A stretch of DNA of 64,000 bases, from assembly GCA_963678705.1 (NCBI GenBank), contig CAVMBN010000145.1, positions 1 to 64,000 of the forward strand, given 5' to 3'. Origin of the DNA: Panorpa germanica (lineage: Eukaryota > Arthropoda > Insecta > Mecoptera > Panorpidae). The notes beneath the pieces were generated by a model. It was not told the origin of the DNA. It did no database searches and saw only the letters and a list, made by a program, of their open reading frames with translations. The position numbers were made by a program, and so were the translations under genes. Below are positions 1 through 64,000 of this stretch, piece after piece (the stretch's first letter is position 1; each line of letters opens with the position of its first letter).

Positions 1-60
1 CCACTTTTTTCACCTAAAGTAGCAGGAGCCGATCACACACATAGTAGATAGGAACCACTT
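1..60 (-). repeat. Partial satellite unit at left edge
   Basis: This is the last 60 bases of a unit whose remainder lies outside the window. It carries the conserved CACCTAAAGTAGCAGGAGCC block. On the minus strand this reads IGSCYFR then a stop, which I take as the decayed extreme C-terminus of the RT protein (compare the GHGCFR-type block near the end of R1-clade ORF2). Confidence 0.9.
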
Positions 61-1643
61 GTGTTGCAAAGCAATATTACCGTCCTTGTAAACCAATACG
101 TAGGTCTTCCTTTTTGTATTAAGTCCATCTGTCTTGCCAGAGCTTATGCATATATGCATTCATCTCTTTGGCAATATATTTGGTATCGTCTCTAGACTTT
201 TATCGTACAGCCGCATTAACTTTAAATCCACGAAATTTGTCGCATTAATTTTAAATCATCAAAAATTTGATTTTTTCAGTTGTAGCGTAATTTGTACTTG
301 AGTAAGTGCATGAGTGACTTTTAAATCTTAAGGAATTGTCCCCAATATCACTTGCACCACTTCTGTAGATACAGTTCTGCAACAACGCGTCATCGTCAAT
401 AACATAGTTCTTTGCATAAAAGATCTGGAAGATTGATCCTGTAATACCATGCCGAAGCACAATACACAACTATTAGCATAAATGCCCCCTTGTATAGTGT
501 CGGCATAGTTGCCGAGTTTAAGCTTCATTCCGTCCTTGTGACACGCGCAAGGTGTGTTACAAGTTTATCATTCGTTGTTACTGTATTTGTTTCGTAGCTT
601 TGTAGCTTCAAGAAACTACAGATTTTATATATAGCAGGTCGAGAACGCTTTCTAGGGTTTCTGTACTATTTGCACCGATTAGGATCACATTATCGTTAGC
701 AAAACATATGTCTACACAACCTTTCGAGTGAGAAACACAGTTCTCGTCGAATACCATGTTCCAGAGCTCAGGCCCCATTACAGATCGCTGAGGACAACCT
801 TTAGATAGTTGCCTTTTCATGGAACGGTAATCGGTTTGTAAAATAATGTTCGACAATGAAAATAGTTCTCCATAGCGCAGTAGACGTACCTATAGGTTTT
901 TGCCGGTCTAATTCTTTGAAGGTCACTTGGCCACCGGACATCAACAAAGGCACACTGAATTTCTATAAATATCTCATATACATACTTGTACTTATGCCTA
1001 CTTACTTACCATTTGTTTGTTACCATTGAATGTTCATGAACGATCAATCACTATTTCCAAGAAAACCGCATATATTGTTCACTTAATCACTTATAACAAT
1101 TAATACACTCTCATTATTATTTAAAACACGCATTATATAAACTAATTCTTGTGTTTTAATATTATTTATAGTTAATGTTATTCGACTTACTTGATAGTGG
1201 GCGGCAACCTTTTGTCTTCCGTAAATTTGTAGTGTTTATATGAGGTCCTCCTTATATATCTCTACAGATTTCTTGAATTTTAAACCACTTGATGTTTTAG
1301 CACTAACACTAACCTAATTCTCATCACTTTTTTTGTCTATCGCACTTATTAATGTCTTATATCAAACATCAAAGTTACAAATTTGAGGTTATGTTTATAA
1401 GACTGCGTGTACGCGTAATTAAAAATTCGTTTTTAACACTGGTTTCCAACTGTCAAACTTTTGTAAAAACACTTTGTTTAGGGTAAATTAACACAAATTT
1501 AAAACAAACTTAAATACTTTTCGTTTGAAAAAGTATTCATATAATTATTTAATTATTTTCCATAATTAATTTCTCACTTTTAATCACTTTTTTCACCTAA
1601 AGTAGCAGGAGCCGATCACACACATAGTAGATAGGAACCACTT
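61..1643 (-). repeat. Satellite unit 1 (1,583 bp)
   Basis: The head shares TCTCTAGAC and ATCGTACAG with units 5 and 8. One base is missing near 647 (GAGAACGCTTTC instead of GAGAACGGCTTTC), which shifts the RT frame and leaves only an 82-residue open stretch at 608-856 on the minus strand. Confidence 0.95.
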
Positions 1644-3220
1644 GTGTTGCAAAGCAATATTTACGTCCTTTTTAACCAATACGTAGGTCTTCCTTTTTGT
1701 ATTAAGTCCCATCTGTCTTGCCAGAGCTTATGCATATATGCATTCATCTCTTTGTCAATATATTTAGTAGCGTCTCCAGACTTTTATCCTACAGCCGCAT
1801 TAACTTTAAATCCTCGAAATTTGTCGCATTAATTTTAAATTATCAAAATTTGATTTTTTCAGTTCTAGCGTAATTTGTACTTGAGTAAGTGCATGAGTGA
1901 TTTTTATATCTAAAGGAATTGTCCCCAATATCACTTGCACCACTTCTGTAGATACAGTTCTGCAACAACGCGTCATCGTCAATAACATAATTCTTTGCAT
2001 GGAAGATCTGGAAGATGATCCTGCAATACCATGCCGAAGCACAATACACAACTATTAGCATAAATGCCCCCTTGTATAGTGTCGGCATAGTTGCCGAGTT
2101 TAGGCTTCATTCCGTCCTTGTGACACGCGCAAGGTGTGTTACAAGTTCGTTGTTACTGTATTTGTTTCGTAGCTTTGTAGCTTCAAGAAACTACAGATTT
2201 TATATATAGCAGGTTGAGAACGGCTTTCTAGGGTTTCTGTACTATTTGCACCGATAAGGATCACATTATCGTTGGCAAAACATATGTCTACACAACCTTT
2301 CGAGTGAGAAACACAGTTCTCGTCGAATACTATGTTCCAGAGCTCAGGCCCCATTACAGATCGCTGAGGACAACCTTTAGATAGTTGCCTTTTCATGGAA
2401 CAATAATCGGTTTGTAAAATAATGTTCGACAATGAAAATAGTTCTCCATAGCGCAGTAGACGTACCTATAGGTTTTTGCCGGTCTAATTCTTCGAAGGTC
2501 ACTTGGCCACCGGACATCAACAAAGGCACACTGAATTTCTATAAATATCTCATATACATACTTGTACTTATGCCTACTTACTAACCATTTGTTTGTTACC
2601 ATTGAATGTTCATGAACGATCAATCACTATTTCCAAGAAAACCGCATATATTGTTCACTTAATCACTTATAACAAATAATACACTCTCATTATTATTTAA
2701 AACACGCATTTATATAAACTAATTCTTGTGTTTTAATATTATTTATAGTTAATGTTATTCGACTTACTTGATAGTGGGCGGCAACCTTTTGTCTTACGTA
2801 TATTTGTAGTGTTTATATGAGGTCTTCCTTATATATCTCTACAGATTTCTTGAATTTTAAACCACTTGATGTTTTAGCACTAACACTAACCTAATTCTTA
2901 TCACTTTTTTTGTCTATCGCACTTACTAATGTCTTATATCAAACATCAAAGTTACAAATTTGAGGTTATGTTTATAAGACCGCGTGTACGCGTAATGAAA
3001 AATTCGTTTTTAACACTGGTTTCCAACTGTCAAACTTTTGTAAAAACACTTTGTTTAGGGTAAATTAACAAAAATTTAAAACAAACTTAAATACTTTTCG
3101 TTTGAAAAGTATTCATATAATTTATTTAATTTTTTTCCATAATTAATTGCTTACTTTTAATCACTTTTTTCACCTAAAGTAGCAGGAGCCGATAACACAC
3201 ATAGTAGATAGGAACCACTT
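1644..3220 (-). repeat. Satellite unit 2 (1,577 bp)
   Basis: Seven bases are missing near 2145 (ACAAGTTCGTTG), just downstream (minus-strand sense) of the RT block, so the open stretch at 2139-2432 ends in a different frame. The motif A remnant is open at 2393-2623 and begins at an unrelated upstream Met. One T is also missing near 2014 (GAAGATGATCC). Confidence 0.95.
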
Positions 3221-4804
3221 GTGTTGCAAAGCAATATTAACGTCCTTGTAAACCAATACGTAGGTCTTCCTTTTTGTATTAAGTCCCATCTGTCTTGCCA
3301 GAGCTTATGCATATATGCATTCATCTCTTTGGCAATATATTTGGTATCGTCTCCAGACTTTTATCCTACAGCCGCATTAACTTTAAATCCTCGAAATTTG
3401 TCGCATTAATTTTAAATCATCAAAATTTGATTTCTTTAGTTCTAGCGTAATTTGTACTTGAGTAAGTGCAGGAGTAATTTTTAAATCTAAAGGAATTGTC
3501 CCCAATATCACTTGTACCACTTCTGTAGATACAGTTCTGCAACAACGCGTTATCGTCAATAACATAGTTCTTTGCATGGAAGATCTGGAAGATTGATCCT
3601 GTAATACCATGCCGAAGCACAATACACAACTATTAGCATAAATGCCCCCTTGTATAGTGTCGGCATAGTTGCCGAGTTTAAGCTTCATTCCGTCCTTGTG
3701 ACACGCGCAAGGTGTGTTACAAGTTTATCATTCGTTGTTACTGTATTTGTTTCGTAGCTTTGTAGCTTCAAGAAACTACAGATTTTATATATAACAGGTC
3801 GAGAACGGCTTTCTAGGGTTTCTGTACTATTTGCACCGATAAGGATCACATTATCGTTAGCAAAACATATGTCTACACAACCTTTCGAGTGAGAAATACT
3901 GTTCTCGTCGAATACTATGTTCCAGAGCTCAGGCCCCATTACAGATCGCTGAGGACAACCTTTAGATAGTTGCCTTTTCATGGAACGGTAATCGGTTTGT
4001 AAAATAATGTTCGACAATGAAAATAGTTCTCCATAGCGCAGTAGACGTACCTATAGGTTTTTGCCGGTCTAATTCTTTGAAGGTCACTTTGCCACCGGAC
4101 ATCAACAAAGGCACACTGAATTTCTATAAATATCTCATATACAAACTTGTACTTATGCCTACTTACTTACCATTTGTTTGTTACCATTGAATGTTCATGA
4201 ACGATCAATCACTATTTCCAAGAAAACCGCATATATTGTTTACTTAATCACTTATAACAATTAATACACTCTTATTATTATTTAAAACACGCATTTATAT
4301 AAACTAATTCTTGTGTTTTAATATTATTTATAGTTAATGTTATTCGACTTACTTGAAAGTGGGCGGCAACCTTTTGTCTTCCGTATATTTGTAGTGTTTA
4401 TATGAGGTCTTCCTTATATATTTCTACAGATTTCTTGAATTTTAAACCACTTGATGTTTTAGCACTAACACTAACCTAATTCTTATCACTTTTTTTGTCT
4501 ATCGCACTTACTAATGTCTTATATCAAACATCAAAGTTACAAATTTGAGGTTATGTTTATAAGACCGCGTGTACGCGTAATGAAAAATTCGTTTTAACAC
4601 TGGTTTCCAACTGTCAAACTTTTGTAAAAACACTTTGTTTAGGGTAAATTAACACAAATTTAAACAAACTTAAATACTTTTCGTTTGAAAAAGTATTCAT
4701 ATAATTTATTTAATTATTTTCCATAATTAATTTCTCACTTTTAATCACTTTTTTCACCTAAAGTAGCAGGAGCCGATCACACACATAGTAGATAGGAACC
4801 ACTT
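3221..4804 (-). repeat. Satellite unit 3 (1,584 bp)
   Basis: It carries the RT variant FDENSISHS at 3685-4017, which recurs in units 10, 11, 17-19, 22, 23, 26, 30, 33 and 36. The LWQDRWD/KGRPTYWFT C-terminal block is legible on the minus strand at 3247-3306. Confidence 0.95.
3247..3306 (-). pseudogene. C-terminal LWQDRWD...KGRPTYWFT block (unit 3)
   Basis: On the minus strand this reads LWQDRWDLIQKGRPTYWFT, resembling the WQ-RWD----GRWT-RL block near the ORF2 C-terminus in R1-clade LINEs. It is intact in the consensus head, but G-type units carry a stop at the Arg of KGRP and L-type units a stop after LIQ. Further downstream a CVIGSCYFR remnant precedes the stop at the end of the previous unit. 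Confidence 0.7.
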
Positions 4805-6389
4805 GTGTTGCAAAGCAATATTTACGTCCTTGTAAACCAATACGTAGGTCTTCCTTTTTGTATTAAGTCCCATCTGTCTTGCCAGAGCTTATGCATATAT
4901 GCATTCATCTCTTTGTCAATATATTTGGTAGCGTCTCCAGACTTTTATCCTACAGCCGCATTAACTTTAAATCCTCGAAATTTGTCGCATTAATTTTAAA
5001 TTATCAAAATTTGATTTTTTCAGTTCTAGCGTAATTTGTACTTGAGTAAGTGCATGAGTGATTTTTATATCTAAAGGAATTGTCCCAAATATCACTTGCA
5101 CCACTTCTGTAGATACAGTTCTGCAACAACGCGTCATCGTCAATAACATAATTCTTTGCATGGAAGATCTGGAAGATTGATCCTGCAATACCATTCCGAA
5201 GCACAATACACAACTATTAGCATAAATGCCCCTTGTATAGTGTCGGCATAGTTGCCGAATTTAGGCTTCATTCCGTCCTTGTGACACGCGCAAGGTGTGT
5301 TACAAGTTTATCATTCGTTGTTACTGTATTTGTTTCGTAGCTTTGTAGCTTCAAGAAACTACAGATTTTATATATAGCAGGTCGAGAACGGCTTTCTAGG
5401 GTTTCTGTACTATTTGCACCGATAAGGATCACATTATCGTTGGCAAAACATATGTCTACACAACCTTTCGAGTGAGAAACACAGTTCTCGTCGAATACCA
5501 TGTTCCAGAGCTCAGGCCCCATTACAGATCGCTGAGGACAACCTTTAGATAGTTGCCTTTTTATGGAACAATAATCGGTTTGTAAAATAATGTTCGACAA
5601 TGAAAATAGTTCTCCATAGCGCAGTAGACGTACCTATAGGTTTTTGCCGGTCTAATTCTTCGAAGGTTACTTGGCCACCGGACATCAACAAAGGCACACT
5701 GAATTTCTATAAATATCTCATATACATACTTGTACTTATGCCTACTTACTTACCATTTGTTTGTTACCATTGAATGTTCATGAACGATCAATCACTATTT
5801 CCAAGAAAACCGCATATATTGTTCACTTAATCACTTATAACAATTAATACACTCTCATTATTATTTAAAACACGCATTTATATAAACTAATTCTTGTGTT
5901 TTAATATTATTTATAGTTAATGTTATTCGACTTACTTTATAGTGGGCGGCAACCTTTTGTCTTCCGTATATTTGTAGTGTTTATATGAGGTCTTCCTTAT
6001 ATAGCTCTACAGATTTCTAGAATTTCCAAATCACTTCATGTTTTAGCACTAACACTAACTTGATTATTATTACTTTTTTTGTCTATCGCACTTATTAATG
6101 TCTTATATCAAACATCAAAGTTACAAATTTGAGGTTATGTTTATAAGACCGCGTGTACGCGTAATGAAAAATTCGTTTTTAACACTGGTTTCCAACTGTC
6201 AAACTTTTGTAAAAACACTTTGTTTAGGGTAAATTAACACAAATTTAAAACAAACTTAAATACATTTCGTTTGAAAAAGTATTCATATAATTTATTTAAT
6301 TTTTTTCATAATTAATTTCTCACTTTTAATCACTTTTTTCACCTAAAGTAGCAGGAGCCGATCACACACATAGTAGATAGGAACCACTT
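4805..6389 (-). repeat. Satellite unit 4 (1,585 bp)
   Basis: The RT block is open at 5268-5600 with the FDENCVSHS variant. The spacer has private changes near 6018-6065 (TTTCTAGAATTTCC, ACTTGATTATTATTAC). The head resembles unit 2. Confidence 0.95.
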
Positions 6390-7974: not shown

Positions 7975-9531
7975 GTGTTGCAAAGCAATATTACCGTCCT
8001 TGTAAAGCAATACGTAGGTCTTCTTTTTTGTATTAAGTCCTATCTGTCTTGCCAGAGCTTATGCATATATGCATTCATCTCTTTGGCAATATATTTGGTA
8101 TCGTCTCCAGACTTTTATCCTACAGCCGCATTAACTTTAAGTCCTCGAAATTTGATTTTTTCAGTTCTAGCGTAATTTGTACTTGAGTAAGTGCATGAGT
8201 GATTTTTAAATCTAAAGGAATTGTCCCTAATATCACTTGCACCACTTCTGTAGATACAGTTCTGCAACAACGCGTCATCGTCAATAACATAGTTCTTTGC
8301 ATGGAAGATCTGGAAGATTGATCCTGTAATACCATGCCGAAGCACAATACACAACTATTAGCATAAATGCCCCCTTGTATAGTGTCGGCATGTTTGCCGA
8401 GTTTAAGCTCCATTTCGTTCTTGTGACAGGCGCAAGGTGTGTTACAACTTTATCATTCGTTGTTACTGTATTTGTTTCGTAGCTTTGTAGCTTCAAGAAA
8501 CTACAGATTTTATATATAGCAGGTCGAGAACGGCTTTCTAGGGTTTCTGTACTATTTGCACCGATAAGGATCACATTATCGTTGGCAAAACATATGTCTA
8601 CACAACCTTTCGAGTGAGAAACACAGTTCTCGTCGAATACCATGTTCCAGAGCTCAGGCCCCATTACAGATCGCTGAGGACAACCTTTAGATAGTTGCCT
8701 TTTCATGGAACAGTAATCGGTTTGTAAAAAAATGTTCGACAATGAAAATAGTTCTCCATAGCGCAGTAGACGTACCTATAGGTTTTTGCCGGTCTAATTC
8801 TTTGAAGGTCACTTGGCCACCGGACATCAACAAAGGCACACTGAGTTTCTATAAATATCTCATATACATACATGTACTTATGCCTACTTACTTACCATTT
8901 GTTTGTTACCATTGAATGTTCATGAACGATCAATCACTATTTCCAAGAAAACCGCATATATTGTTCACTTAATCACTTATAACAATTAATACACTCTCAT
9001 TATTATTTAAAACACGCATTTATATAAACTAATTCTTGTGTATTAATATTATTTATAGTTAATGTTATTCGACTTACTTAATAGTGGGCGGCAACCTTTT
9101 GTCTTCCGTATATTTGTAGTGTTTATATGAGGTCTTCCTTATATATCTCTACTGATTTCTTGAATTTCAAACCACTCGATGTTTTAGCAATAACACTAAC
9201 CTAATTATTATCACTTTTTTTGTCTATCGCACTTATTAATGTCTTATATCAAACATCAAAGTTACAAATTTGAGGTTATGTTTATAAGACTGCGTGTACG
9301 CGTAATGAAAAATTCGTTTTTAACACTGGTTTCCAACTGTCAAACTTTTGTAAAAACACTTTGTTTAGGGTAAATTAACACAAATTTAAAACAAACTTAA
9401 ATACTTTCCGTTTGAAAAAGTATTCATATAATTTATTTAATTTTTTTCCATAATTCATTTCTCACTTTTAATCACTTTTTTCACCTAAAGTAGCAGGAGC
9501 TGATCACACACATAGTAGATAGGAACCACTT
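7975..9531 (-). repeat. Satellite unit 6 (1,557 bp, unique deletion, open stop)
   Basis: It lacks 29 bases near 8147-8154. The missing piece lies between two copies of AAATTTG, so one copy was probably lost by slippage or microhomology joining. It is the only unit in which the usual in-frame TGA after the RT block reads TGG, giving a 153-residue open frame at 8281-8742. Confidence 0.95.
8281..8742 (-). pseudogene. Longest RT remnant, 153 residues (unit 6)
   Basis: Residues 18-29 are motif B (SKGCPQRSVMGP), 52-55 FAND, and 111 is Trp where other units have a TGA stop. The frame therefore runs on into LYKGAFMLIVVYCASAWY (residues 121-138) before ending in the next frameshift. This shows directly that the two blocks belong to one ancestral reading frame. 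It is still catalytically dead and truncated at both ends. Confidence 0.85.
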
Positions 9532-23720: not shown

Positions 23721-23806
23721 GTGTTGCAAAGCAATATTAACGTCCTTGTAAACCAATACGTAGGTCATCCTTTTTGTATTAAGTCCCATCTGTCTTGCCA
23801 GAGCTT

Positions 23807-23820
23807 ATGCATATATGCAT
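23807..23820. repeat. 14-bp perfect palindrome ATGCATATATGCAT
   Basis: Self-complementary over all 14 bases, within the C-terminal RT remnant just upstream of the LWQDRWD block. Found in nearly every unit; units 14 and 39 have single-base breaks. Confidence 0.8.
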
Positions 23821-23882
23821 TCATCTCTTTGTCAATATATTTGGTATCGTCTCCAGACTTTTATCCTACAGCCGCATTAACT

Positions 23883-24188
23883 TTAAATCCTCGAAATTTG
23901 TCGCATTAATTTTAAATCATCAAAATTTGATTTTTTCAGTTCTAGCGTAATTTGTACTTGAGTAAGTGCATGAGTGATTTTTAAATCTAAAGGAATTGTC
24001 CCCAATATCACTTGCACCACTTCTGTAGATACAGTTCTGCAACAACGCGTCATCGTCAATAACATAGTTCTTTGCATGGAAGATCTGGAAGATTGATCCT
24101 GTAATACCATGCCGAAGCACAATACACAACTATTAGCATAAATGCCCCCTTGTATAGTGTCGGCATAGTTGCCTAGTTTGAGCTTCAT
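23883..24188 (-). pseudogene. RT thumb/C-terminal block
   Basis: Open stretch of 101 codons. From residue 38 it reads MQRTMLLTMTRC, then RTVSTEVVQVILGTIPLDL (residues 51-69), which matches the conserved stretch after the RT domain in R1-clade proteins (typically RT[TV]ST-A-QV--G--PLDL). Its first ~35 residues look out of frame: the genuine protein over that stretch is YKGAFMLIVVYCASAWY in the neighbouring frame, so a frameshift lies between them. Confidence 0.8.
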
Positions 24189-24517: not shown

Positions 24518-24691
24518 TGAAAATAGTTCTCCATAGCGCAGTAGACGTACCTATAGGTTTTTGCCGGTCTAATTCTTTGAAGGTCACTTGGCCACCGGAC
24601 ATCAACAAAGGCACACTGAATTTCTATAAATATCTCATATACATACTTGTACTTATGCCTACTAACTTACCATTTGTTTGTTACCATTGAA

Positions 24692-24703
24692 CGTTCATGA
24701 ACG
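24692..24703. repeat. 12-bp perfect palindrome CGTTCATGAACG
   Basis: Most units have the 10-base core GTTCATGAAC; here and in units 25, 27, 29, 31, 34 and 38 a T-to-C change extends it to 12 bases. Units 12, 14 and 20 (ATTCATGAAC) and 24 and 28 (GTGCATGAAC) break it. Confidence 0.75.
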
Positions 24704-25305: not shown

Positions 25306-26862
25306 GTGTTGCAAAGCAATATTACCGTCCTTGTAAACCAATACGTAGGTCTTCCTTTTTGTATTAAGTCCCATCTGTCTTGCCAGAGCTTATGCATATA
25401 TGCATTTATCTCTTTGGCAATATATTTGGTATCGTCTCCAGACTTTTATCCTACAGCCGCATTAACTTTAAATCCTCGAAATTTGTCGCATTAATTTTAA
25501 ATCATCAAAATTTGATTTTTTCAGTTCTAGCGTAATTTGTACTTGAGTAAGTGCATGAGTGATTTTTAAATCTAAAGGAATTGTCCCCAATATCACTTGC
25601 ACCACTTCTGTAGATACAGTTTTGCAACAACGCGTCATCGTCAATAACATAGTTCTTTGCATGGAAGATCTGGAAGATTGATCCTGTAATACCATGCCGA
25701 AGCACAATACACAACTATTAGCATAAATGCCCCCTTGTATAGTGTCGGCATAGTTGCCGAGTTTAAGCTTCATTCCGTCCTTGTGACACGCGCAAGGTGT
25801 GTTACAAGTTTATCATTCGTTGTTACTGTATTTGTTTCGTAGCTTTGTAGCTTCAAGAAACTACAGATTTTATATATAGCAGGTCGAGAACGGCTTTCTA
25901 GGGTTTCTGTACTATTTGCACCGATAAGGATCACATTATCGTTGGCAAAACATATGTCTACACAACCTTTCGAGTGAGAAATACTGTTCTCGTCGAATAC
26001 TATGTTCCAGAGCTCAGGCCCCATTACAGATCGCTGAGGACAACCTTTAGATAGTTGCCTTTTCATGGAACGGTAATCGGTTTGTAAAATAATGTTCGAC
26101 AATGAAAATAGTTCTCTGTAGCGCAGTAGAAGTACCTATAGGTTTTTGCCGGTCTAATTCTTTGAAGGTCACTTAACCACCGGACATCAACAAAGGCACA
26201 CTGAATTTCTATAAATATCTCATATACATACTTGTACTTATGCCTACTTACTTACCATTTGTTTGTTACTATTGAATGTTCATGAACAATCAATCACTAT
26301 TTCCAAGAAAACCGCATATATTGTTCACTTAATCACTTATAACAATTAATACACTCTCATTATTATTTAAAACACGCATTTATTTTAACTAATTCTTGTG
26401 TTTTAATATTATTTATAGTTAATGTTATTCGACTTACTTGATAGTGGGCGGCAACCTTTTGTCTTCCGTATATTTGTAGTGTTTATATGAGGTCTTCCTT
26501 ATATATCTCTACAGATTTCTTAAATTTTAACCTAATTATTATCACTTTTTTTGTCTATCGCACTTATTAATGTCTTATATCAAACATCAAAGTTACAAAT
26601 TTGAGGTTATGTTTATAAGACCGCGTGTACGCGTAATGAAAAATTCGTTTTTAACACTGGTTTTCAACTGTCAAACTTTTGTAAAAACACTTTGTTTAGG
26701 GTAAATTAACACAAATTTAAAACAAACTTAAAAACTTTTCGTTTGAAAAAGTATTCATATAATTTATTTAATTTTTTTCCATAATTAATATCTCACTTTT
26801 AATCACTTTTTTCACCTAAAGTAGCAGGAGCCGATCACACACATAGTAGATAGGAACCACTT
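25306..26862 (-). repeat. Satellite unit 17 (1,557 bp, T type)
   Basis: First copy of the T type: RT variant FDENSISHS (25770-26102), TTACTATTGAATG with GAACAATCAATC, and a 29-base spacer deletion at 26521-26532 (TTTTAA joined to CCTAATT). The same deletion occurs in units 23, 26, 30, 33 and 36. Confidence 0.95.
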
Positions 26863-28448
26863 GTGTTGCCAAGCAATATTAACGTCCTTGTAAACCAATA
26901 CGTAAGTCTTCCTTTTTGTATTAAGTCCCATCTGTCTTGCTAGAGCTTATGCATATATGCATTCATCTCTTTGGCAATATATTTGGTATCGTCTCCAGAC
27001 TTTTATCCTACAGCCGCATTAACTTTAAATCCTCGAAATTTGTCGCATTAATTTTAAATCATCAAAATTTGATTTTTTCAGTTCTAGCGTAATTTGTACT
27101 TGAGTAAGTGCATGAGTGATTTTTTAATCTAAAGCAATTGTCCTTAATATCACTTGCACCACTTCTGTAGATACAGTTCTGCAACAACGCGTCATCGTCA
27201 ATAACATAGTTCTTTGCATGAAAGATCAGGAAGATTGATCCTGTAATACCATGCCGAAGCACAATACACAACTATTAGCATAAATGCCCCCTTGTATAGT
27301 GTCGGCATAGTTGCCGAGTTTAAGCTTCATTCCGTCTTTGTGACACGCGCATGGTGTGTTACAAGTTTATCATTCGTTGTTACTGTATTTGTTTCGTAGC
27401 TTTGTTGCTTCAAGAAACTACAGATTTTATATATAACAGGTCGAGAGCGGCTTTCTAGAGTTTCTGTACTATTTGCACCGATAAGGATTACATTATCGTT
27501 GGCAAAACATATGTCTACACAACCTTTCGAGTGAGAAATACTGTTCTCGTCGAATACTATGTTCCAGAGCTCAGGCCCCATTACAGATCGCTGAGGACAA
27601 ATTTTAGATAGTTGCCTTTTCATGGAACGGTAATCGGTTTGTAAAATAATGTTCGACAATGAAAATAGTTCTCCATAGCGCAGTAGACGTACTTATAGGT
27701 TTTTGCCGGTCTAATTCTTTGAAGGTCACTTTGCCACCGGACATCAACAAAGGCACACAGAATTTCTATAAATATCTCATATACAAACTTGTACTTATGC
27801 CTACTTACTTACCATTTGTTTGTTACCATTGAATGTTCATGAACGATTAATCACTATTTCCAAGAAAACCGCATATATTGTTCACTTAATCACTTATAAC
27901 AATTAATACACTCTCATTATTATTGAAAACACCCATTTATATAAACTAATTCTTGTGTTTTAATATTATTTATAGTTAATGTTATTCGACTTACTTGATA
28001 GTGGGCGGCAACCTTTTGTCTTCCGTATATTTGTAGTGTTTATATGAGGTCTTCCTTATATATCTCTACAGATTTCTTGAATATTATATCACTTGATGTT
28101 TTAGCACTAACACTAACCTAATTATTATCACTTTTTTTGTCTATCGCACTTATTAATGTCTTATATCAAACATCAAAGTTACAAATTTGGGGTTATGTTT
28201 ATAAGACTGCGTGTACGCGTAATTAAAAATTCGTTTTTAACACTGGTTTCCAACTGTCAAACTTTTGTAAAAACACTTTGTTTAGGGTAAATTAACACAA
28301 ATTTAAAACAAACTTAAATACTTTTCGTTTGAAAAAGTATTCATATTATTTATTTAATTTTTTTCCATAATTAATTTCTCACTTTTAATCACTTTTTTCA
28401 CCTAAAGTAGCAGGAGCCGATCACACACATAGTAGATAAGAACCACTT
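26863..28448 (-). repeat. Satellite unit 18 (1,586 bp)
   Basis: Copy of unit 10 (GTTGCCAAG, SKICPQRS; RT block at 27327-27659). Private differences include GTTGCTTC near 27404 and TATTGAAAAC near 27922. Confidence 0.95.
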
Positions 28449-30034
28449 GTGTTGCAAAGCAATATTAACGTCCTTGTAAACCAATACGTAAGTCTTCCTT
28501 TTTGTATTAAGTCCCATCTGTCTTGCTAGAGCTTATGCATATATGCATTCATCTCTTTGGCAATATATTTGGTATCGTCTCCAGACTTTTATCCTACAGC
28601 CGCATTAACTTTAAATCCTCGAAATTTGTCGCATTAATTTTAAATCATCAAAATTTGATTTTTTTAGTTCTAGCGTAATTTGTACTTGAGTAAGTGCATG
28701 AGTAATTTTTAAATCTAAAGGAATTGTCCCCAATATCACTTGCACCACTTCTGTAGATACAGTTCTGCAACAACGCGTCATCGTCAATAACATAGTTCTT
28801 TGCATGGAAGATCAGGAAGATTGATCCTGTAATACCATGCCGAAGCACAATACACAACTATTAGCATAAATGCCCCCTTGTATAGTGTCGGCATAGTTGC
28901 CGAGTTTAAGCTTCATTCCGTCCTTGTGACACGCGCATGGTGTGTTACAAGTTTATCATTCGTTGTTACTGTATTTGTTTCGTAGCTTTGTAGCTTCAAG
29001 AAACTACAGATTTTATATATAACAGGTCGAGAACGGCTTTCTAGAGTTTCTGTACTATTTGCACCGATAAGGATTACATTATCGTTGGCAAAACATATGT
29101 CTACACAACCTTTCGAGTGAGAAATACTGTTCTCGTCGAATACTATGTTCCAGAGCTCAGGCCCCATTACAGATCGCTGAGGACAACCTTTAGATAGTTG
29201 CCTTTTCATGGAACGGTAATCGGTTTGTAAAATAATGTTCGACAATGAAAATAGTTCTATATAGCGCAGTAGACGTACCTATAGGTTTTTGCCGGTCTAA
29301 TTCTTTGAAGGTCACTTTGCCACCGGACATCAACAAAGGCACACTGAATTTCTATAAATATCTCATATACAAACTTGTACTTATGCCTACTTACTTACCA
29401 TTTGTTTGTTACCATTGAATGTTCATGAACGATCAATCACTATTTCCAAGAAAACCGCATATATTGTTCACTTAATCACTTATAACAATTAATACACTCT
29501 CATTATTATTTAAAACACGCATTTATATAAACTAATTCTTGTGTTTTAATATTATTTATAGGTAATGTTATTCGACTTACTTGATAGTGGGCGGCAACCT
29601 TTTGTCTTCCGTATATTTGTAGTGTTTATATGAGGTCTTCCTTATATATCTCTACAGATTTCTTGAATTTTAAACCACTTGATGTTTTAGCACTAACACT
29701 AACCTAATTATTATCACTTTTTTTGTCTATCGCACTTATTAATGTCTTATATCAAACATCAAAGTTACAAATTTGAGGTTATGTTTATAAGACCGCGTGT
29801 ACGCGAAATGAAAAATTCGTTTTTAACACTGGTTTCCAACTGTCAAACTTTTGTAAAAACACTTTGTTTAGGGTAAACTAACACAAATTTAAAACAAACT
29901 GAAATACTTTTCGTTTGAAAAAGTATTCATATAATTTATTTAATTTTTTTCCATAATTATTTTCTCACTTTTAATCACTTTTTTCACCTAAAGTAGCAGG
30001 AGCCGATCACACACATAGTAGATAGGAACCACTT
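28449..30034 (-). repeat. Satellite unit 19 (1,586 bp)
   Basis: Copy of unit 11 with the RT block at 28913-29245. It shares GATAAGAACC and TTATAGGTAATG with unit 11. A private GCGAAATG near 29803 alters the GC-rich near-palindrome flank. Confidence 0.95.
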
Positions 30035-31620
30035 GTGTTGCAAAGCAATATTATTGTCATTGTAAACCAATACGTAGGTCTTCCTTTTTTTATTAAGTCC
30101 CATCTGTCTTGCCAGAGCTTATGCATATATGCATTCATCTCTTTGTCAATATATTTGGTATCATCTCCAGACTTTTATCCTACAGCCGCATTAACTTTAA
30201 ATCCTCGAAATTTGTCGCATAAATTTTAAAACATCAAAATTTGATTTTTTCAGTTCTAGCGTAATTTGTACTTGAGTAAGTGCATGAGTGATTTTTAAAT
30301 CTAAAGGAATTGTCCCCAATATCACTTGCACCACTTCTGTAGATACAGTTCTGCAACAACGCGTCATCGTCAATAACATAGTTCTTTGCATGGAAGATCT
30401 GGAAGATTGATCCTGTAATTCCATGCCGAAGCACAATACACAACTATTAGCATAAATGCCCCCTTGTATAGTGTCGGCATAGTTGCCGAGTTTAAGCTTC
30501 ATTCCGTCCTTGTGACACGCGCAAGGTGTGTTACAAGTTTATTATTCGTTGTTACTGTATTTGTTTCGTATCTTTGTAGCTTCAAGAAACTACAGATTTT
30601 ATATATTGCAGGTCGAGAACGGCTTTCTAGGGTTTCTGTACTATTTGCACCGATAAGGATCACATTAACGTTGGCAAAACATATGTCTACACAACCTTTC
30701 GAGTGAGAAACACAGTTCTCGTCAAATACCATGTTCCAGAGCTCAGGCCCCATTACAGATCGCTGAGGACAACCTTTAGATAGTTGCCTTTTCATGGAAC
30801 GGTAATCGGTTTGTAAAATAATGTTCGACAATGAAAATAGTTCTCTATAGCGCAGTAGAAGTACCTATAGGTTTTTGCCGGTCTAATTCTTTGAAGGTCA
30901 CTTGGCCACCGGACATCAACAAAGGCACACTGAATTTCTATAAATATCTCATATACATACTTGTACTTATGCCTACTTACTTACCATTTGTTTGTTACCA
31001 TTGAATATTCATGAACGATCAATCACTATTTCCAAGAAAACCGCATATATTGTTCACTTAATCACATATTACAATTAATACACTCTCATTATTATTTAAA
31101 ACACGCATTTATATAAACTAATTCTTGTGTTTTAATATTTTTTATAGTTAATGTTAATCGACTTACTTGATAGTGGGCGGCAACCTTTTGTCTTCCGTAT
31201 ATTTGTAGTGTTTATATGAGGTCTTCCTTATATATCTCTACAGATTTCTTGAATTTTAAACCACTTGATGTTTTAGCACTAACACTAACCTAATTATTAT
31301 CACTTTTTTTGTCTATCGCACTTATTATTGTCTTATATCAAACATCAAAGTTACAAATTTGATATTATGTTTATAAGACCGCGTGTACGCGTAATGAAAA
31401 ATTCGTTTTTAACACTGGTTTCCAACTGTCAAACTTTTGTAAAAACACTTTGTTTAGGGTAAATTAACACAAATTTAAAACAAACTTAAATACATTTCGT
31501 TTGAAAAAGTATTCATATAATTTATTTAATTTTTTTCCATTATTAATTTCTCACTTTTAATCACTTTTTTCACCTAAAGTAGCAGGAGCCGATCACACAC
31601 ATAGTAGATAGGAACCACTT
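30035..31620 (-). repeat. Satellite unit 20 (1,586 bp)
   Basis: Copy of unit 12 (ATTATTGTCATTG head; RT block at 30499-30831) but it keeps the 42 bases missing from units 12 and 14. Motif C here reads FANV because GATAAT became GTTAAT (plus strand CACATTAACG near 30662). Confidence 0.95.
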
Positions 31621-33206
31621 GTTTTGCAAAGCAATATTAACGTCCTTGTAAACCAATACGTAGGTCTTCCTTTTTGTATTAAGTCCCATCTGTCTTGCCA
31701 GAGCTTATGCATATATGCATTCATCTCTTTGGCAATATATTTGGTATCGTCTCCAGACTTTTATCCTACAGCCGCATTACCTTTAAATCCTCGAAATTTG
31801 TCGCATTAATTTTAAATCATCAAAATTTGAATTTTTCAGTTCTAGCGTAATTTGTACTTGAGTAAGTGCATGAGTGATTTTTAAATCTAAAGGAATTGTC
31901 CCCAATATCACTTGCACCACTTCTATAGATACAGTTCTGCAACAATGCGTCATCGTCAATAACATAGTTCTTTGCATGAAAGATCTGAAAGATTGATCCT
32001 GTAATACCATGCCGAAGCACAATACACAACTATTAGCATAAATGCCCCCTTGTATAGTGTCGGCATAGTTGCCGAGTTTAAGCTTCATTCCGTCCTTGTG
32101 ACACGCGCAAGGTGTGTTACAAGTTTATCAATTGTTGTTACTGTATTTGTTTCGTAGCTTTGTAGCTTCAAGAAACTACAGATTTTATATATAGCAGGTC
32201 GAGAACGGCTTTCTAGGGTTTCTGTACTATTTGCACCGATAAGGATCACATTATCGTTGGCAAAACATATGTCTACTCAACCTTTCGAGTGAGAAACACA
32301 GTTCTCGTCGAATACCATGTTCCAGAGCTCAGGCCCCATTACAGATCGCAGAGGACAACCTTTAGATAGTTGCCTTTTCATGGAACGGTAATCGGTTTGT
32401 AAAATAATGTTCTACAATGAAAATAGTTCTCTATAGCGCAGTAGAAGTACCTATAGGTTTTTGCCGGTCTAATTCTTTGAAGGTCACTTGGCAACCGGAC
32501 ATCAACAAAGGCACACTGAATTTCTATAAATATCTCATATACATACTTGTACTTATGCCTACTCACTTACCATTTGTTTGTTACCATTGAATGTTCATGA
32601 ACGATCAATCACTATTTCCAAGAAAACCGCATATATTGTTCACTTAATCACTTATAACAATTAATACACTCTCATTATTATTTAAAACACGCATTTATAT
32701 AAACTAATTCTTGTGTTTTAATATTATTTATAGTTAATGTTATTCGACTTACTTGATAGTGGGCGGCAAACTTTTGTCTTCTATATATTTGTAGTGTTTA
32801 TATGAGGTCTTCCTTATATATCTTTACAGATTTCTTGAATTTTAAACCACTTGATGTTTTAGCACTAACACTAACCTAATTATTATCACTTTTTTTGTCT
32901 ATCGCACTTATTAATGTCTTATATCAAACATCAAAGTTACAAATTTGATATTATGTTTATAAGACCGCGTGTACGCGTAATGAAAAATTCGTTTTTAACA
33001 CTGGTTTCCAACTGTCAAACTTTTGTAAAAACACTTTGTTTAGGGTAAATTAACACAAATTTAAAACAAACTTAAATACTTTTCGTTTGAAAAAGTATTC
33101 ATATAATTTATTTAATTTTTTTCCATAATTAATTTCTCACTTTTTATCACTTTTTTCACCTAAAGTAGCAGAAGCCGATCACACACATATTAGATAGGAA
33201 CCACTT
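31621..33206 (-). repeat. Satellite unit 21 (1,586 bp)
   Basis: Copy of unit 13/15. A new stop in the RT block (TCTACTCAACC near 32275 turns KGCVD into KG-stop) leaves no long RT frame. The motif A remnant is open at 32378-32566 (CAFVDVRLPSDL). Confidence 0.95.
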
Positions 33207-56781: not shown

Positions 56782-58367
56782 GTGTTGCAAAGCAATATTA
56801 ACGTCCTTGTAAACCAATACGTAGGTCTTACTTATTGTATTAAGTCCCATCTGTCTTGCCAGAGCTTATGCATATATGCATTCATCTCTTTGTCAATATA
56901 TTTGGTATCGTCTCCAGACTTTTATCCTAAAGCCGCATTAACTTTAAATCCTCGAAATTTGTCGCATTAATTTTAAATCATCAAAATTTGATTTTTTCAG
57001 TTCTAGTGTAATTTGTACTTGAGTAAGTGCATGAGTGATTTTTAAATCTAAATGAATTGTCCCCAATATCACTTGCACCACTTCTGTAGATACAGTTCTG
57101 CAACAACGCGTCATCGTCAATAACATAGTTCTTTGCTTGGAAGATCTGGAAGATTGATCTTGTAATACCATGCCGAAGCACAATACACAACTATTAGCAT
57201 AAATGCCCCCTTGTATAGTGTCGGCATAGTTGCCGAGTTTAAGCTTCATTCCGTCCTTGTGACACGCGCAAGGTGTGTTACAAGTTTATCATTCGTTGTT
57301 ACTGTATTGGTTTCGTAGCTTTGTAGCTTCAAGAAACTACAGATTTTATATAAAGCAGGTCGAGAACGGCTTTCTAGGGTTTCTGTACTATTTACACCGA
57401 TAAGGATCACATTATCGTTGGCAAAACATATGTCTACACAACCTTTCGAGTGAGAAACACAGTTCTCGTCGAATACCAAGTTCCAGAGTTTAGGCCCCAT
57501 TACAGATCGCTGAGGACAACCTTTAGATAGTTGCCTTTTCATGGAACGGTAATCGGTTTGTAAAATAATGTTCGACAATGAAAATAGTTCTCCATAGCGC
57601 AGTAGACGTACCTATAGGTTTTTGCCGGTCTAATTCTTTGAAGGTCACTTGGCCACCGGACATCAACAAAGGCACACTGAATTTCTATAAATATCTCATA
57701 TACATACTTGTACTTATGCCTACTTACTTACCATTTGTTTGTTACCATTGAATGTTCATGAACGATCAATCACTATTTCCAAGAAAACCGCATATATTGT
57801 TCACTTAATCACTTATAACAATTAATACACTCTCATTATTATTTAAAACACGCATTTATATAAACTAATTCTTGTGTTTTAATATTATTTATAGTTAATG
57901 TTATTCGACTTACTTGATAGTGGGCGGCAACCTTTTGTCTTCCGTATATTTGTAGTGTTTATATGAGGTCTTCCTTATATATCTCTACAGATTTCTTGAA
58001 TTTTAAACCACTTGATGTTTTAGCACTAACACTAACCTAATTATTATTACTTTTTTTGTCTATCGCACTTATTAATGTCTTATATCAAACATCAAAGTTA
58101 CAAATTTGAGGTTATGTTTATAAGACCGCGTGTACGCGTAATGAAAAATTCGTTTTTAACACTGGTTTCCAACTGTCAAACTTTTGTAAAAACACTTTGT
58201 TTAGGGTAAATTAACACAAATTTAAAACAAACTTAAATACTTTTCGTTTGAAAAAGTATTCATATAATTTATTTAATTTTTTTTCATAATTAATTTCTCA
58301 CTTTTAATCACTTTTTTCACCTAAAGTAGCAGGAGTTGATCACACACATAGTAGATAGGAACCACTT
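56782..58367 (-). repeat. Satellite unit 37 (1,586 bp, chimeric)
   Basis: L-type head through AAATGAATTG (57049-57058), then unit-35-type body starting by GCTTGGAAG (57136), with GPKLWNLV at 57246-57578. The switch lies between unit bases ~271 and ~355. Confidence 0.95.
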
Positions 58368-59939
58368 GTGTTGCAAAGCAATATTAACGTCCTTGTAAAC
58401 CAATACGTAGGTCTTCCTTTTTGTATTAAGTCCCATCTGTCTTGCCAGAGCTTATGCATATATGCATTCATCTCTTTGTCAATATATTTGGTATCGTCTC
58501 CAGACTTTTATCCTAAAGCCGCATTAACTTTAAATCCTCGAAATTTGTCGCATTAATTTTAAATCATCAAAATTTGATTTTTTCAGTTCTAGTGTAATTT
58601 GTACTTGAGTAAGTGCATGAGTGATTTTTAAACCTAAAGGAATTGTCCCCAATATCACTTGCACCACTTCTGTAGATACAGTTCTGCAACAACGCGTCAT
58701 CGTCAATAACATAGTTCTTTGCATGGAAGATCTGGAAGATTGATCCTGTAATACCATCCCGAAGCACAATACACAACTATTAGCATAAATGCCCCCTTGT
58801 ATAGTGTCGGCATAGTTGCCGAGTTTAAGCTTCATTCCGTCCTTGTGACACGCGCAAGGTGTGTTACAAGTTTATCATTCGTTGTTACTGTATTTGTTTC
58901 GTAGCTTTGTAGCTTCAAGAAACTACAGATTTTATATATAGCAGGTCGAGAACGGCTTTCTAGGGTTTCTGTACTATTTGCACCGATAAGGATCACATAG
59001 TTCATAGATCACAACCTTTCGAGTGAGAAACACAGTTCTCGTCGAATACCATGTTCCAGAGCTCAGGCCCCATTACAGATCGCTGAGGACAACCTTTAGA
59101 TAGTTGCCTTTTCATGGAACGGTAATCGGTTTGTAAAATAATGTTCGACAATGAAAATAGTTCTCCATAGCGCAGTAGACGTACCTATAAGTTTTTGCCG
59201 GTCTAATTCTTTGAAGGTCACTTGGCCACCGGACATCAACAAAGGCACACTGAATTTCTATAAATATCTTATATACATACTTGTACTTATGCCTACTAAC
59301 TTACCATTTGTTTGTTACCATTGAACGTTCATGAACGATCAATCACTATTTCCAAGAAAACCGCATATATTGTTCACTTAATCACTTATAACAATTAATA
59401 CACTCTCATTATTATTTAAAACACGCATTTATATAAACTTATTCTTGTGTTTTAATATTCTTTATAGTTAATGTTATTCGACTTACTTAATAGTGGGCGG
59501 CAACCTTTTGTCTTCCGTATATTTGTAGTGTTTATATGAGGTCTTCCTTATATATCTCTACAGATTTCTTGAATTTTAAACCACTTGATGTTTTAGCACT
59601 AACACTAACCTAATTATTATCACTTTTTTTGTCTATCGCACTTATTAATGTCTTATATCAAACATCAAAGTTACAAATTTGAGGTTATGTTTATAAGACC
59701 GCGTGTACGCGTAATGAAAAATTCGTTTTTACACTGGTTTCCAACTGTCAAACTTTTGTAAAAACACTTTGTTTAGGGTAAATTAACACAAATTTAAAAC
59801 AAACTTAAATACTTTTCGTTTGAAAAAGTATTCATATAATTTATTTAATTTTTTTCCATAATTAATTTCTCACTTTTAATCACTTTTTTCACCTAAAGTA
59901 GCAGGAGCCGATCACACACATAGTAGATAGGAACCACTT
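58368..59939 (-). repeat. Satellite unit 38 (1,572 bp, chimeric)
   Basis: K-type head through AAAGGAATTG (near 58637), then unit-34-type body from ACCATCCCG (near 58755) with motif C replaced near 58998-59010. The switch lies between unit bases ~270 and ~390. Confidence 0.95.
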
Positions 59940-61525
59940 GTGTTGCAAAGCAGTATTAACGTCCTTGTAAACCAATACGTAGGTCTTCCTTTTTGTATTA
60001 AGTCCCATCTGTCTTGCCAGAGCTTAAGCATATATGCATTCATCTCTTTGGCAATATATTTGGTATCGTCTCCAGACTTTTATCTTACAGCCGCATTAAC
60101 TTTAAATCCTCGAAATTTGTCGCATTAATTTTAAATCATCAAAATTTGATTTTTTCAGTTCTAGCGTAATTTGTACTTGAGTAAGTGCATGAGTGATTTT
60201 TAAATCTAAAGGAATTGTCCCCAATATCACTTGCACCACTTCTGTAGATACAGTTCTGCAACAACGCGTCATCGTCAATAACATAGTTCTTTGCTTGGAA
60301 GATCTGGAAGATTGATCTTGTAATACCATGCCGAAGCACAATACACAACTATTAGCATAAATGCCCCCTTGCATAGTGTCGGCATAGTTGCCGAGTTTGA
60401 GCTTCATTCCGTCCTTGTGACACGCGCAAGGTGTGTTACAAGTTTATCATTTGTTGTTACTGTATTGGTTTCGTAGCTTTGTAGCTTCAAGAAACTACAG
60501 ATTTTATATATAGCAGGTCGAGAACGGCTTTCTAGGGTTTCTGTACTATTTACACCGATAAGGATCACATTATCGTTGGCAAAACATATGTCTACACAAC
60601 CTTTCGAGTGAGAAACACAGTTCTCGTCGAATACCAAGTTCCAGAGCTCAGGCCCCATTACAGATCGCTGAGGACAACCTTTAGATAGTTGCCTTTTCAT
60701 GGAACGGTAATCGGTTTGTAAAATAATGTTCGACAATGAAAATAGTTCTCCATAGCGCAGTAGACGTACCTATAGGTTTTTGCCGGTCTAATTCTTTGAA
60801 GGTCACTTGGCCACCGGACATCAACAAAGGCACACTGAATTTCTATAAATATCTCATATACATACTTGTACTTATGCCTACTTACTTACCATTTGTTTGT
60901 TACCATTGAATGTTCATGAACGATCAATCACTATTTCCAAGAAAACCGCATATATTGTTCACTTAATCACTTATAACAATTAATACACTCTGATTATTAT
61001 TTAAAACACGCATTTATATAAACTAATTCTTGTGTTTTAATATTATTTATAGTTAATGTTATTCGACTTACTTGATAGTGGGCGGCAACCTTTTGTCTTC
61101 CGTATATTTGTAGTGTTTATATGAGGTCTTCCTTATATATCTCTACAGATTTCTTGAATTTTAAACCACTTGATGTTTTAGCACTAACACTAACCTAATT
61201 ATTATTACTTTTTTTGTCTATCGCACTTATTAATGTCTTATATCAAACATCAAAGTTACAAATTTGAGGTTATGTTTATAAGACCGCGTGTACGCGTAAT
61301 GAAAAATTCGTTTTTAACACTGGTTTCCAACTGTCAAACTTTTGTAAAAACACTTTGTTTAGGGTAAATTAACACAAATTTAAAACAAACCTAAATACTT
61401 TTCGTTTGAAAAAGTATTCATATAATTTATTTAATTTTTTTCCATAATTAATTTCTCACTTTTAATCACTTTTTTCACCTAAAGTAGCAGGAGCCGATCA
61501 CACACATAGTAGATAGGAACCACTT
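59940..61525 (-). repeat. Satellite unit 39 (1,586 bp)
   Basis: RT block at 60404-60736 with GPELWNLV and IGVNSTE, so between the consensus and the K type. AGCTTAAGCATATATGCAT near 60023 breaks one arm of the 14-base palindrome. Confidence 0.95.
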
Positions 61526-63098
61526 GTGTTGCAAAGCAATATTACCGTCCTTGTAAACCAATACGTAGGTCTTCCTTTTTGTATTAAGTACCATCTGTCT
61601 TGCCAGAGCTTATGCATATATGCATTCATCTCTTTGTCAATATATTTGGTATCGTCTCCAGACTTTTATCCTAAAGCCGCATTAACTTTAAATCCTCGAA
61701 ATTTGTCGCATTAATTTTAAATCATCAAAATTTGATTTTTTCAGTTCTAGTGTAATTTGTACTTGAGTAAGTGCATGAGTGATTTTTAAATCTAAAGGAA
61801 TTGTCCCCAATATCACTTGCACCACTTCTGTAGATACAGTTCTGCAACAACGCGTCATCGTCAATAACATAGTTCTTTGCATAGAAGATCTGGAAGATTG
61901 ATCCTGTAATACCATGCCGAAGCACAATACACAACTATTAGCATAAATGCCCCCTTGCATAGTGTCGGCATAGTTGCCGAGTTTAAGCTTCATTCCGTCC
62001 TTGTGACACGCGCAAGGTGTGTTACAAGTTTATTATTCGTTGTTACTGTATTTGTTTCGTAGCTTTGAAGCTTCAAGAAACTACAGATTTTATATATAGC
62101 AGGTCGAGAACGGCTTTCTAGGGTTTCTGTACTATTTGCACCGATAAGGATCACATAGTTCATAGATCACAACCTTTCGAGTGAGAAACACAGTTCTCGT
62201 CGAATACCATGTTCCAGAGCTCAGGCCCCATTACAGATCGCTGAGGACAACCTTTAGATAGTTGCCTTTTCATGGAACGGTAATCGGTTTGTAAAATAAT
62301 GTTCGACAATGAAAATAGTTCTCTATAGCGCAGTAGACGTACCTATAGGTTTTTGCCGGTCTAATTCTTTGAAGGTCACTTGGCCACCGGACATCAACAA
62401 AGGCACACTGAATTTCTATAAATATCTCATATACATACTTGTACTTATGCCTACTTACTTACCATTTGTTAGTTACCATTGAATGTTCATGAACGATCAA
62501 TCACTATTTCCAAGAAAACCGCATATATTGTTTACTTAATCACTTATAACAATTAATACACTCTTATTATTATTTAAAACACGAATTTATATAAACTTAT
62601 TCTTGTGTTTAAATATTATTTATAGTTAATGTTATTCGACTTACTTGATAGTGGGCGGCAACCTTTTGTCTTCCGTATATTTGTAGTGTTTATATGAGGT
62701 CTTCCTTATATATCTCAACAGATTTCTTGAATTTTAAACCACTTGATGTTTTAGCACTAACACTAACCTAATTATTATCACTTTTTTTGTCTATCGCACT
62801 TATTAATGTCTTATATCAAACATCAAAGTTACAAATTTGAGGTTATGTTTATAAGACCGCGTATACGCGTAATGAAAATTTCGTTTTTAACACTGGTTTC
62901 CAACTGTCAAACTTTTGTAAAAACACTTTGTTTAAGGTAAATTAACACAAATTTAAAACAAACTTAAATACTTTTCGTTTGAAAAAGTATTCATATAATT
63001 TATTTAACTTTTTTCCATAATTAATTTCTCACTTTTAATCACTTTTTTCACCTAAAGTAGCAGGAGCCGATCACACACATAGTAGATAGAAACCACTT
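61526..63098 (-). repeat. Satellite unit 40 (1,573 bp, motif C replaced)
   Basis: Motif C is replaced near 62155-62168. The tail has AACACGAATTT as in units 24 and 28, and like them it is followed by a G-type unit. The GC-rich site is altered to GCGTATACGCG near 62860, which happens to be a perfect palindrome core. Confidence 0.95.
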
Positions 63099-64000
63099 GT
63101 GTTGCAAAGCAATATTAACGTCCTTGTAAACCAATACGTAGGTCATCCTTTTTGTATTAAGTCCAATCTGTCTTGCCAGAGCTTATGCATATATGCATTC
63201 ATCTCTTTGTCAATATATTTGGTATCGTCTCCAGACTTTTATCCTACAGCCGCATTAACTTTAAATCCTCGAAATTTGTCGCATTAATTTTAAATCATCA
63301 AAATTTGATTTTTTCAGTTCTAGTGTAATTTGTACTTGAGTAAGTGCATGAGTGATTTTTAAATCTAAAGGAATTGTCCCTAATATCACTTGCACCACTT
63401 CTGTAGATACAGTTCTGCAACAACGCGTCATCGTCAATAACATAGTTCTTTGCATGGAAGATCTGGAAGATTGATCCTGTAATACCATGCCGAAGCACAA
63501 TACACAACTATTAGCATTAATGCCCCCTTGTATAGTGTCGGCATAGTTGCCGAGTTTAAGCTTCATTCCGTCCTTGTGACACGCGCAAGGTGTGTTACAA
63601 GTTTATCATTCGTTGTTACTGTATTCGTTTCGTAGCTTTGTAGCTTCAAGAAACTACAGATTTTATATATAGCAGGTCGAGAACAGCTTTCTAGGGTTTC
63701 TGTCCTATTTGCACCGATAAGGATCACATTATCGTTGGCAAAACATATGTCTACACAACCTTTCGAGTGAGAAAAACAGCTCTCGTCGAACACCAAGTTC
63801 CAAAGCTCAGGCTCCATTACAGATCGCTGAGGACAACCTTTAGATAGTTGCCTTTTCATGGAACGGTAATCGGATTGTAAAATAATGTTCGACAATGAAA
63901 ATAGTTCTCCATAGCGCAGTAGACGTACCTATAGGTTTTTGCCGGTCTAATTCTTTGAAGGTCACTTGGCCACCGGACATCAACAAAGGCACACTGAATT
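63099..64000 (-). repeat. Partial satellite unit 41 at right edge (902 bp, G type)
   Basis: The G-type head (GGTCATCC) and the whole RT block (63563-63895) are present; the window ends inside the motif A remnant. Several private residues (FDESCFSHS, VMEPELWN, GANRTE) make this one of the more diverged RT copies. Confidence 0.95.

What the first reader, a model, noticed from the sequence alone, without database searches (positions are those of the whole stretch)
1..64000. Macrosatellite built from an RT fragment of an R1-like LINE plus an AT-rich spacer
At least 64 kb consists of nothing but a 1.58 kb unit, about 60% of which is a recognisable RT-to-C-terminus remnant on the minus strand. LINE-derived satellites are known, but a unit this long, kept this uniform over 40 copies in one orientation, may be an undescribed satellite family and could be a major heterochromatin component. 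The R1 clade includes elements specialised for rDNA and telomeric repeats, so a tandem descendant is of interest.
Basis: partly seen in the sequence, partly recalled or inferred. Interest (0 to 1): 0.7.

Follow-up and report, generated by a model that had tools for sequence, protein, structure and literature searches.

The report
Satellite DNA grown from dead LINE

Summary
The whole window is one head-to-tail array: 40 whole monomers plus one cut one, 1,544-1,587 bp, one orientation, mean pairwise identity 97.4%. The minus strand carries a decayed LINE reverse transcriptase. Of five LINE RTs taken from the same genome, the palm is closest to X2, an R1-like one with an open frame of 1,111 aa: 45/99 residues for a diverged copy, against 35/98, 21/103, 21/103 and 24/97. 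Motifs extend the LINE remnant over unit 93-957, about 55%. No coding constraint is visible. The window begins a 282-kb contig of a 464-Mb assembly; an exact 27-mer of the unit occurs 3,810 times, roughly 4,800 units or 7.6 Mb (1.6%). Blocks lie in C1:12.1-14.8 Mb and on C3, C6, C11, C15 and other contigs. Two diverged relatives (units of 1,184 and 1,105 bp, about 80-89% alike) have a different internal deletion, which suggests a longer common ancestor. Best explained as a LINE-derived satellite spread by unequal exchange: a new member of a known kind. Dfam/Repbase, species, centromere role and spacer origin could not be tested.

The parts
1..64000 (.). Satellite array, 40 whole monomers and one cut monomer (m41, 63039-64000), unit consensus 1,586 bp
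1..1583 (.). First monomer (m01), used here for unit numbering
93..957 (-). LINE-like part of the unit by motif span (GRPTYW at the 93 end, CAFVDVRWP at the 957 end), frames broken; coordinates are consensus-unit positions, about the same in m01
   Evidence: motif positions; frames
666..848 (-). RT palm core (IILQTD..GCPQRSVMGPELWN..CFANDN..GANS), the part of the consensus shown by alignment to X2, an R1-like LINE of the same genome; unit positions
985..1583 (.). AT-rich spacer (26.9% GC) of unknown origin, with a short palindrome at 1025-1048
212..269 (.). 29-bp tandem duplication inside the LINE-like part; Tandem Repeats Finder reports it in 38 of 41 monomers (not in m06, m12, m23)
8281..8775 (-). 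Longest minus-strand open frame within any of the 40 whole monomers (164 aa, m06); the other 39 have 78-121 aa
14229..20530 (.). Four-monomer block m10-m13, repeated as m18-m21 (26803-33146) at 99.2-99.7% identity
45736..52006 (.). Block m30-m33, repeated at offset 3 as m33-m36 at 99.2-99.7% identity

Best explanation
It is a non-coding satellite DNA family whose unit froze a piece of a dead R1-like LINE (minus strand, from the RT palm towards the C-terminal side) next to an AT-rich stretch. Shown: the tandem array, the palm homology, the lack of visible coding constraint, the near-identical block duplications and the diverged length variants. Inferred: a broken LINE copy and its flank were duplicated once in tandem; unequal crossing-over, gene conversion or re-insertion of excised circles then spread and homogenised the unit inside heterochromatin of several chromosomes. 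The 1,586-bp form is the one that dominates the copies seen; a longer LINE-bearing repeat was probably the common ancestor of it and of the shorter variants.
For: Array anatomy. Block duplications of 2-4 monomers at 99.2-99.7% against a mean of 97.4%, the mark of local unequal exchange or conversion. RT palm nearest to X2 (tree of 7 rows and 114 columns joins X2 with the satellite, support 91 in IQ-TREE and 0.946 in FastTree). Codon-position diversity 0.032, 0.025, 0.034; nonsynonymous/synonymous changes per site 0.83 (59 and 21 changes); spacer 0.024, whole unit 0.026. The family lies on C1, C3, C6, C11, C15 and others, 38 contigs by my count of the 150 scored places; 27-mer count 3,810, reversed control 0. 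On C179 a Jockey-like LINE insert is repeated with its satellite flanks: insert copies 99.2% alike over 5,065 bp, same junctions, about 8.1 kb apart. The one 1,184-bp unit translated keeps GAFDNVWWP, FADD and SKTKMM motifs that the 1,586-bp consensus has lost or changed; the 1,105-bp unit keeps CKTKMM.
Against: No single dispersed parent element with the same boundaries was seen; the nearest LINE compared is only 45% identical in protein over 99 residues, and only four RT cores (three families) plus one Jockey-type ORF2 were compared, so the founding element is inferred. The spacer's origin is unknown (its search did not complete). No cytology: 'heterochromatin' is inference. The thumb piece does not align to the Jockey-type ORF2 better than chance (score 29, shuffle mean 28.8, 228 of 500 shuffles reach it). 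The nonsynonymous/synonymous ratio is slightly under 1 and was not tested for significance.
Confidence: 0.85

Rival explanations
1. The array was built by repeated target-primed insertion of a site-specific R1-type LINE into its own copies, as described for tandem R1 elements in Drosophila rDNA, not by unequal exchange.
For: R1 elements can form tandem arrays by inserting into target-site copies (passages of PMC2718515). The RT is R1-like.
Against: The unit lacks most of an element and carries the same broken frames and internal deletion in its consensus. Block duplications of several monomers at 99% fit exchange, not insertion. No Rfam family, so no rRNA, reached threshold in the window.
Confidence: 0.05
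2. It is the centromeric satellite of this species, kept long and uniform because it recruits the kinetochore.
For: Blocks over about 2.7 Mb in the middle of C1 (12.1-14.8 of 30.6 Mb), and places inside C3 (17.7-17.9 of 27.8 Mb) and C6. Two orientation switches among the sampled points on C1. TE insertions in arrays.
Against: Not shown on most chromosomes; two places 4.2 Mb apart on C6 and 0.6-1.0 Mb from one end of C11. Within the C1 stretch some sampled points hold none (12.2 Mb) or a diverged relative (13.2 Mb). No CENP-A data; taxon and centromere type unknown.
Confidence: 0.25
3. The LINE resemblance is chance or too decayed to name.
For: Window ORFs reach Pfam RVT_1 only under its cut-off; no solved-structure match for two queries; the thumb piece fails against the Jockey-type ORF2.
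Against: Scores 219 and 179 against X2, with shuffle maxima 44 and 39 in 200 shuffles, and motifs in the order expected for an RT (order recalled).
Confidence: 0.03

Closest known systems
LINE ORF2-derived satellites (PROsat of Phodopus roborovskii; Pvc20 of harbour seal; HinfI/SCR1 of chicken from CR1), as listed in the review PMC9659126 (passages and part of a table seen)
   Same: Satellite monomers that contain part of a LINE ORF2
   Different: Those are vertebrate L1/CR1 cases (in PROsat only a small region is LINE-like); here the RT is R1-like and the remnant spans about half of a 1,586-bp unit
Tandem R1 arrays, and an R1/R2 fusion array outside rDNA, in Drosophila (PMC2718515, passages seen)
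   Same: R1-type LINE sequence in tandem, one case outside rDNA
   Different: The tandem R1 copies there sit at the 28S site, separated by a 14-bp target-site copy; here a broken internal piece alternates with an AT-rich spacer
TE-related satDNAs of oysters, monomers up to 8,637 bp in C. angulata (PMC11136912, passages seen)
   Same: Satellites with long units and similarity to mobile elements; 51 of 61 C. angulata satDNAs resembled Repbase repeats
   Different: The passages name Helitrons, other DNA transposons and retrotransposons; I saw no R1-type case in them
Celine, a centromeric LINE of poplar (PMC11288735, abstract and passages seen)
   Same: LINE sequence concentrated in one chromosomal domain
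   Different: Celine is a mobile element that inserts there; this is a dead fragment amplified in tandem

Membership tests
Satellite DNA | Head-to-tail tandem repeats in long arrays | tested here: met
   40 whole + 1 cut monomer, one strand; continues in C161:64001-74000 and 90001-100000
Satellite DNA | Copies homogenised by concerted evolution | tested here: met
   97.4% mean identity and near-identical blocks
Satellite DNA | High copy number at several places in the genome | tested here: met
   3,810 exact 27-mers; 150 scored places on 38 contigs by my count
Satellite DNA | Location in constitutive heterochromatin | not testable with these tools
   needs FISH or chromatin data
R1 clade LINE (as source of the fragment) | RT nearest to R1-type RTs | tested here: inconclusive
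   nearest of five in-genome LINE RTs is X2, whose motifs I name R1-like from recall; no reference R1/TRAS/SART/LOA proteins available
R1 clade LINE (as source of the fragment) | APE-type endonuclease and C-terminal CCHC motif (recalled) | tested here: inconclusive
   not seen by eye in the translated consensus unit, which is a fragment; no profile was run for them and X2's own ends were not fetched
R1 clade LINE (as source of the fragment) | Site-specific insertion in 28S or telomeric repeats (recalled; true of some members) | not tested
   28S search and telomere pattern search did not complete
Centromeric satellite | Binds CENP-A / sits at the primary constriction | not testable with these tools
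   no ChIP or cytology
Centromeric satellite | One main array on every chromosome | tested here: inconclusive
   only the best 150 of 13,773 candidates were scored; C1 has the most listed places and C6 has two regions

The most novel reading that the evidence does not exclude
An R1-like LINE fragment became the main centromeric or pericentromeric satellite of this species, with the 1,586-bp version replacing related 1,184- and 1,105-bp versions, as in layered centromere evolution.
Probability: 0.2. Interest if true: 0.5.

Novelty: new member of a known kind. Interest (0 to 1): 0.3.

Why it matters
It gives a clear case, with related variants on one chromosome, of a dead LINE turned into a multi-megabase satellite. 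If it marks centromeres, the three length variants would let layered replacement of a LINE-derived centromere repeat be tested. Otherwise it matters mainly for repeat annotation of this genome.

Tried and rejected
Rejected: rRNA or other Rfam RNA in the window (0 matches at gathering score). A working RT gene: longest minus-strand frame 164 aa in 1 of 40 monomers, the other 39 at 78-121 aa, no visible constraint. Jockey-type origin: score 57 against a shuffle maximum of 57. Solved-structure match: none at E 1 for two queries. Thumb piece against the Jockey-type ORF2: no better than shuffles; against my own composed R1-like query: 76 with shuffle maximum 44, which is weak evidence, since I wrote that query after reading the satellite. 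Telomere motifs in seven 500-bp pieces from ends of four contigs: uninformative. Literature: seven searches; no listed title or shown start of abstract names this unit, which is no proof of absence. Never answered: spacer DNA search, 24-mer shared with the variants, 28S family, telomere pattern. On re-reading my calls I withdrew these wordings: that the 1,586-bp form is the youngest branch (ages were not established), that the variants are dated, that oyster satellites are mostly Helitron-like, and that the genome is an insect's.
Full report
What is there. The window is the first 64,000 bases of contig C161 (281,829 bp) of a 464,208,970-bp assembly in 249 contigs with no name attached. It is one array of a single repeat: 40 whole monomers and one cut one, on one strand, 1,544-1,587 bp long, with a 1,586-bp consensus. 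Mean pairwise identity of the 40 whole monomers is 97.4%, range 95.8-99.7%. The array goes on in both later stretches of C161 that were fetched (64,001-74,000 and 90,001-100,000).

Anatomy of the unit. On the minus strand, unit positions 93-957 hold RT-like motifs in LINE order (order recalled): a GAFDNVWWP remnant (CAFVDVRWP), GCPQRSVMGPELWN, CFANDN in place of FADD, a thumb-like piece with LARV..YKG..YCASAW, then LWQDRW and GRPTYW. The frame breaks several times. Positions about 985-1586 are AT-rich (26.9% GC against 37.4% and 40.6% in the two LINE-like parts) and of unknown origin. A 29-bp tandem duplication lies in the LINE-like part; Tandem Repeats Finder reports it in 38 of 41 monomers. 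The main length classes come from shared indels at alignment columns 702-714 (13 bp, 7 of 40 monomers) and 1285-1345.

The RT link. Pfam alone is weak: RVT_1 at E 0.019 and 0.049 for two of four window ORFs, neither above the cut-off, and 5.7e-5 for a diverged copy at C1:11.75 Mb (L032), read with X at two stops, still under the cut-off. The genome was then searched with an R1-like RT query that I composed from memory; it found 151 matches, by their scores and frame lengths of several LINE families. Against these and a Jockey-type ORF2 found inside an array on C179, the diverged copy aligns best to X2 (C1:718,392, open frame 1,111 aa): 45 of 99 residues, score 219. X1 gives 35/98 and 164; X3 21/103 and 60; X5 21/103 and 65; Jockey type 24/97 and 57. 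The window consensus gives 33 of 61 and 179 with X2, 126 with X1, 91 and 94 with X3 and X5, and 50 with the Jockey type. A small tree joins X2 with the satellite (91 / 0.946). The name 'R1-like' rests on recalled motifs; no reference R1, TRAS, SART or LOA protein was available. The thumb piece fails against the Jockey-type ORF2 and scores 76 against the composed query (shuffle maximum 44), which is weak because I wrote that query after seeing the satellite.

No visible coding role. In the 121-codon frame piece, diversity at codon positions 1, 2, 3 is 0.032, 0.025, 0.034; the ratio of nonsynonymous to synonymous changes per site is 0.83 (59 and 21 changes, significance not tested); the spacer is at 0.024 and the whole unit at 0.026. 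One of 40 monomers has a 164-aa minus-strand frame; the others have 78-121 aa.

How it grows. Blocks of monomers recur at 99.2-99.7%: m10-m13 as m18-m21, m12-m13 as m14-m15, m14-m15 as m20-m21, m25-m27 as m29-m31, m26-m27 as m33-m34, m30-m33 as m33-m36. That is what unequal exchange or conversion leaves. On C179 a 5.7-kb Jockey-like LINE sits in the array in two blocks about 8.1 kb apart, with the same junctions; the two inserts are 99.2% alike over 5,065 bp, so inserts are amplified along with the repeat.

Genome picture. The protein query gave 13,773 first-look candidates, of which 150 were scored; the 150 listed places are satellite-like at 94-100% identity, on 38 contigs by my count, among them C1, C3, C6, C11 and C15. 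An exact 27-mer (unit 455-481, absent from the shorter variants) occurs 1,715 + 2,095 = 3,810 times, reversed control 0. In my sample of fetched loci 99 of 124 copies of that segment carry it exactly (the sample was chosen around hits). That suggests about 4,800 units, 7.6 Mb, 1.6% of the assembly; the figure is rough. On C1 (30.6 Mb), of 20 sampled 3-kb points between 10.0 and 16.5 Mb, 8 carry the family, all between 12.1 and 14.8 Mb, 3 carry diverged relatives (11.0, 11.75, 13.2 Mb), and 9 carry none, one of them (12.2 Mb) inside the stretch. Orientation is minus at the family points at 12.1-12.9 Mb, plus at 13.04-14.0, minus at 14.2-14.8.

Relatives. At C1:11.0 Mb the unit is 1,184 bp and at C1:13.2 Mb 1,105 bp, about 80-89% alike to the window's unit over the larger shared parts. 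They lack unit positions of about 144-600, with 45-48 bp of other sequence there. The 1,184-bp unit translated keeps GAFDNVWWP, FADD and SKTKMM; the 1,105-bp unit has a further deletion that removes FADD and keeps CKTKMM. The 1,586-bp form lacks the SKTKMM stretch but keeps the thumb-like piece. Both therefore seem to descend from one longer LINE-bearing repeat by different internal deletions (inference). Their relative ages are not settled: fetched copies of the 1,105-bp unit are as alike (about 96-99%) as those of the window's unit, those of the 1,184-bp unit less so (about 90-99%).

Comparison and verdict. LINE ORF2-derived satellites are known (PMC9659126, passages seen). R1-type tandem arrays, one outside rDNA, are known in Drosophila (PMC2718515, passages). 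Long TE-related satellites are known in oysters (PMC11136912, passages). This is a new member of that kind, with a nice series of variants. Whether it is catalogued, which species it is and whether it is centromeric remain open.

Noticed in passing
L011 3025-8767 and L012 4936-10000 (C179): A Jockey-like LINE (291-aa frame with CCHC-like motifs by eye; ORF2 of 833 aa with endonuclease and RT by Pfam; a further 347-aa frame) sits in the satellite; a second copy of insert and flanks lies about 8.1 kb away.
   Followed up: partly
L023 1-3861 (C6, array edge at about 18,508,861): The satellite array on C6 ends next to a stretch with frames that look Polinton-like (YIDTDS polymerase motif, named from recall).
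   Followed up: no
L027 1633-4769 (C229): A Ty3-like gag/protease piece (named from recall) interrupts the satellite array.
   Followed up: no
C8 about 0.14-3.5 Mb and C1 about 1.8-2.2 Mb (one search places): A second R1-like LINE group (X1, open frames up to about 1,083 aa, grouped by score only) is clustered in these regions, as if it had a preferred target such as rDNA or subtelomeric repeats; the 28S and telomere searches did not complete.
   Followed up: partly
C1:718392, C5:12279316, C6:6109169, C7:10877023, C8:478102, C17:315732, C21:1646491: Seven places give the same score (203 bits) with no stop inside, so the X2 family looks recently active; only the first was fetched, in part.
   Followed up: no
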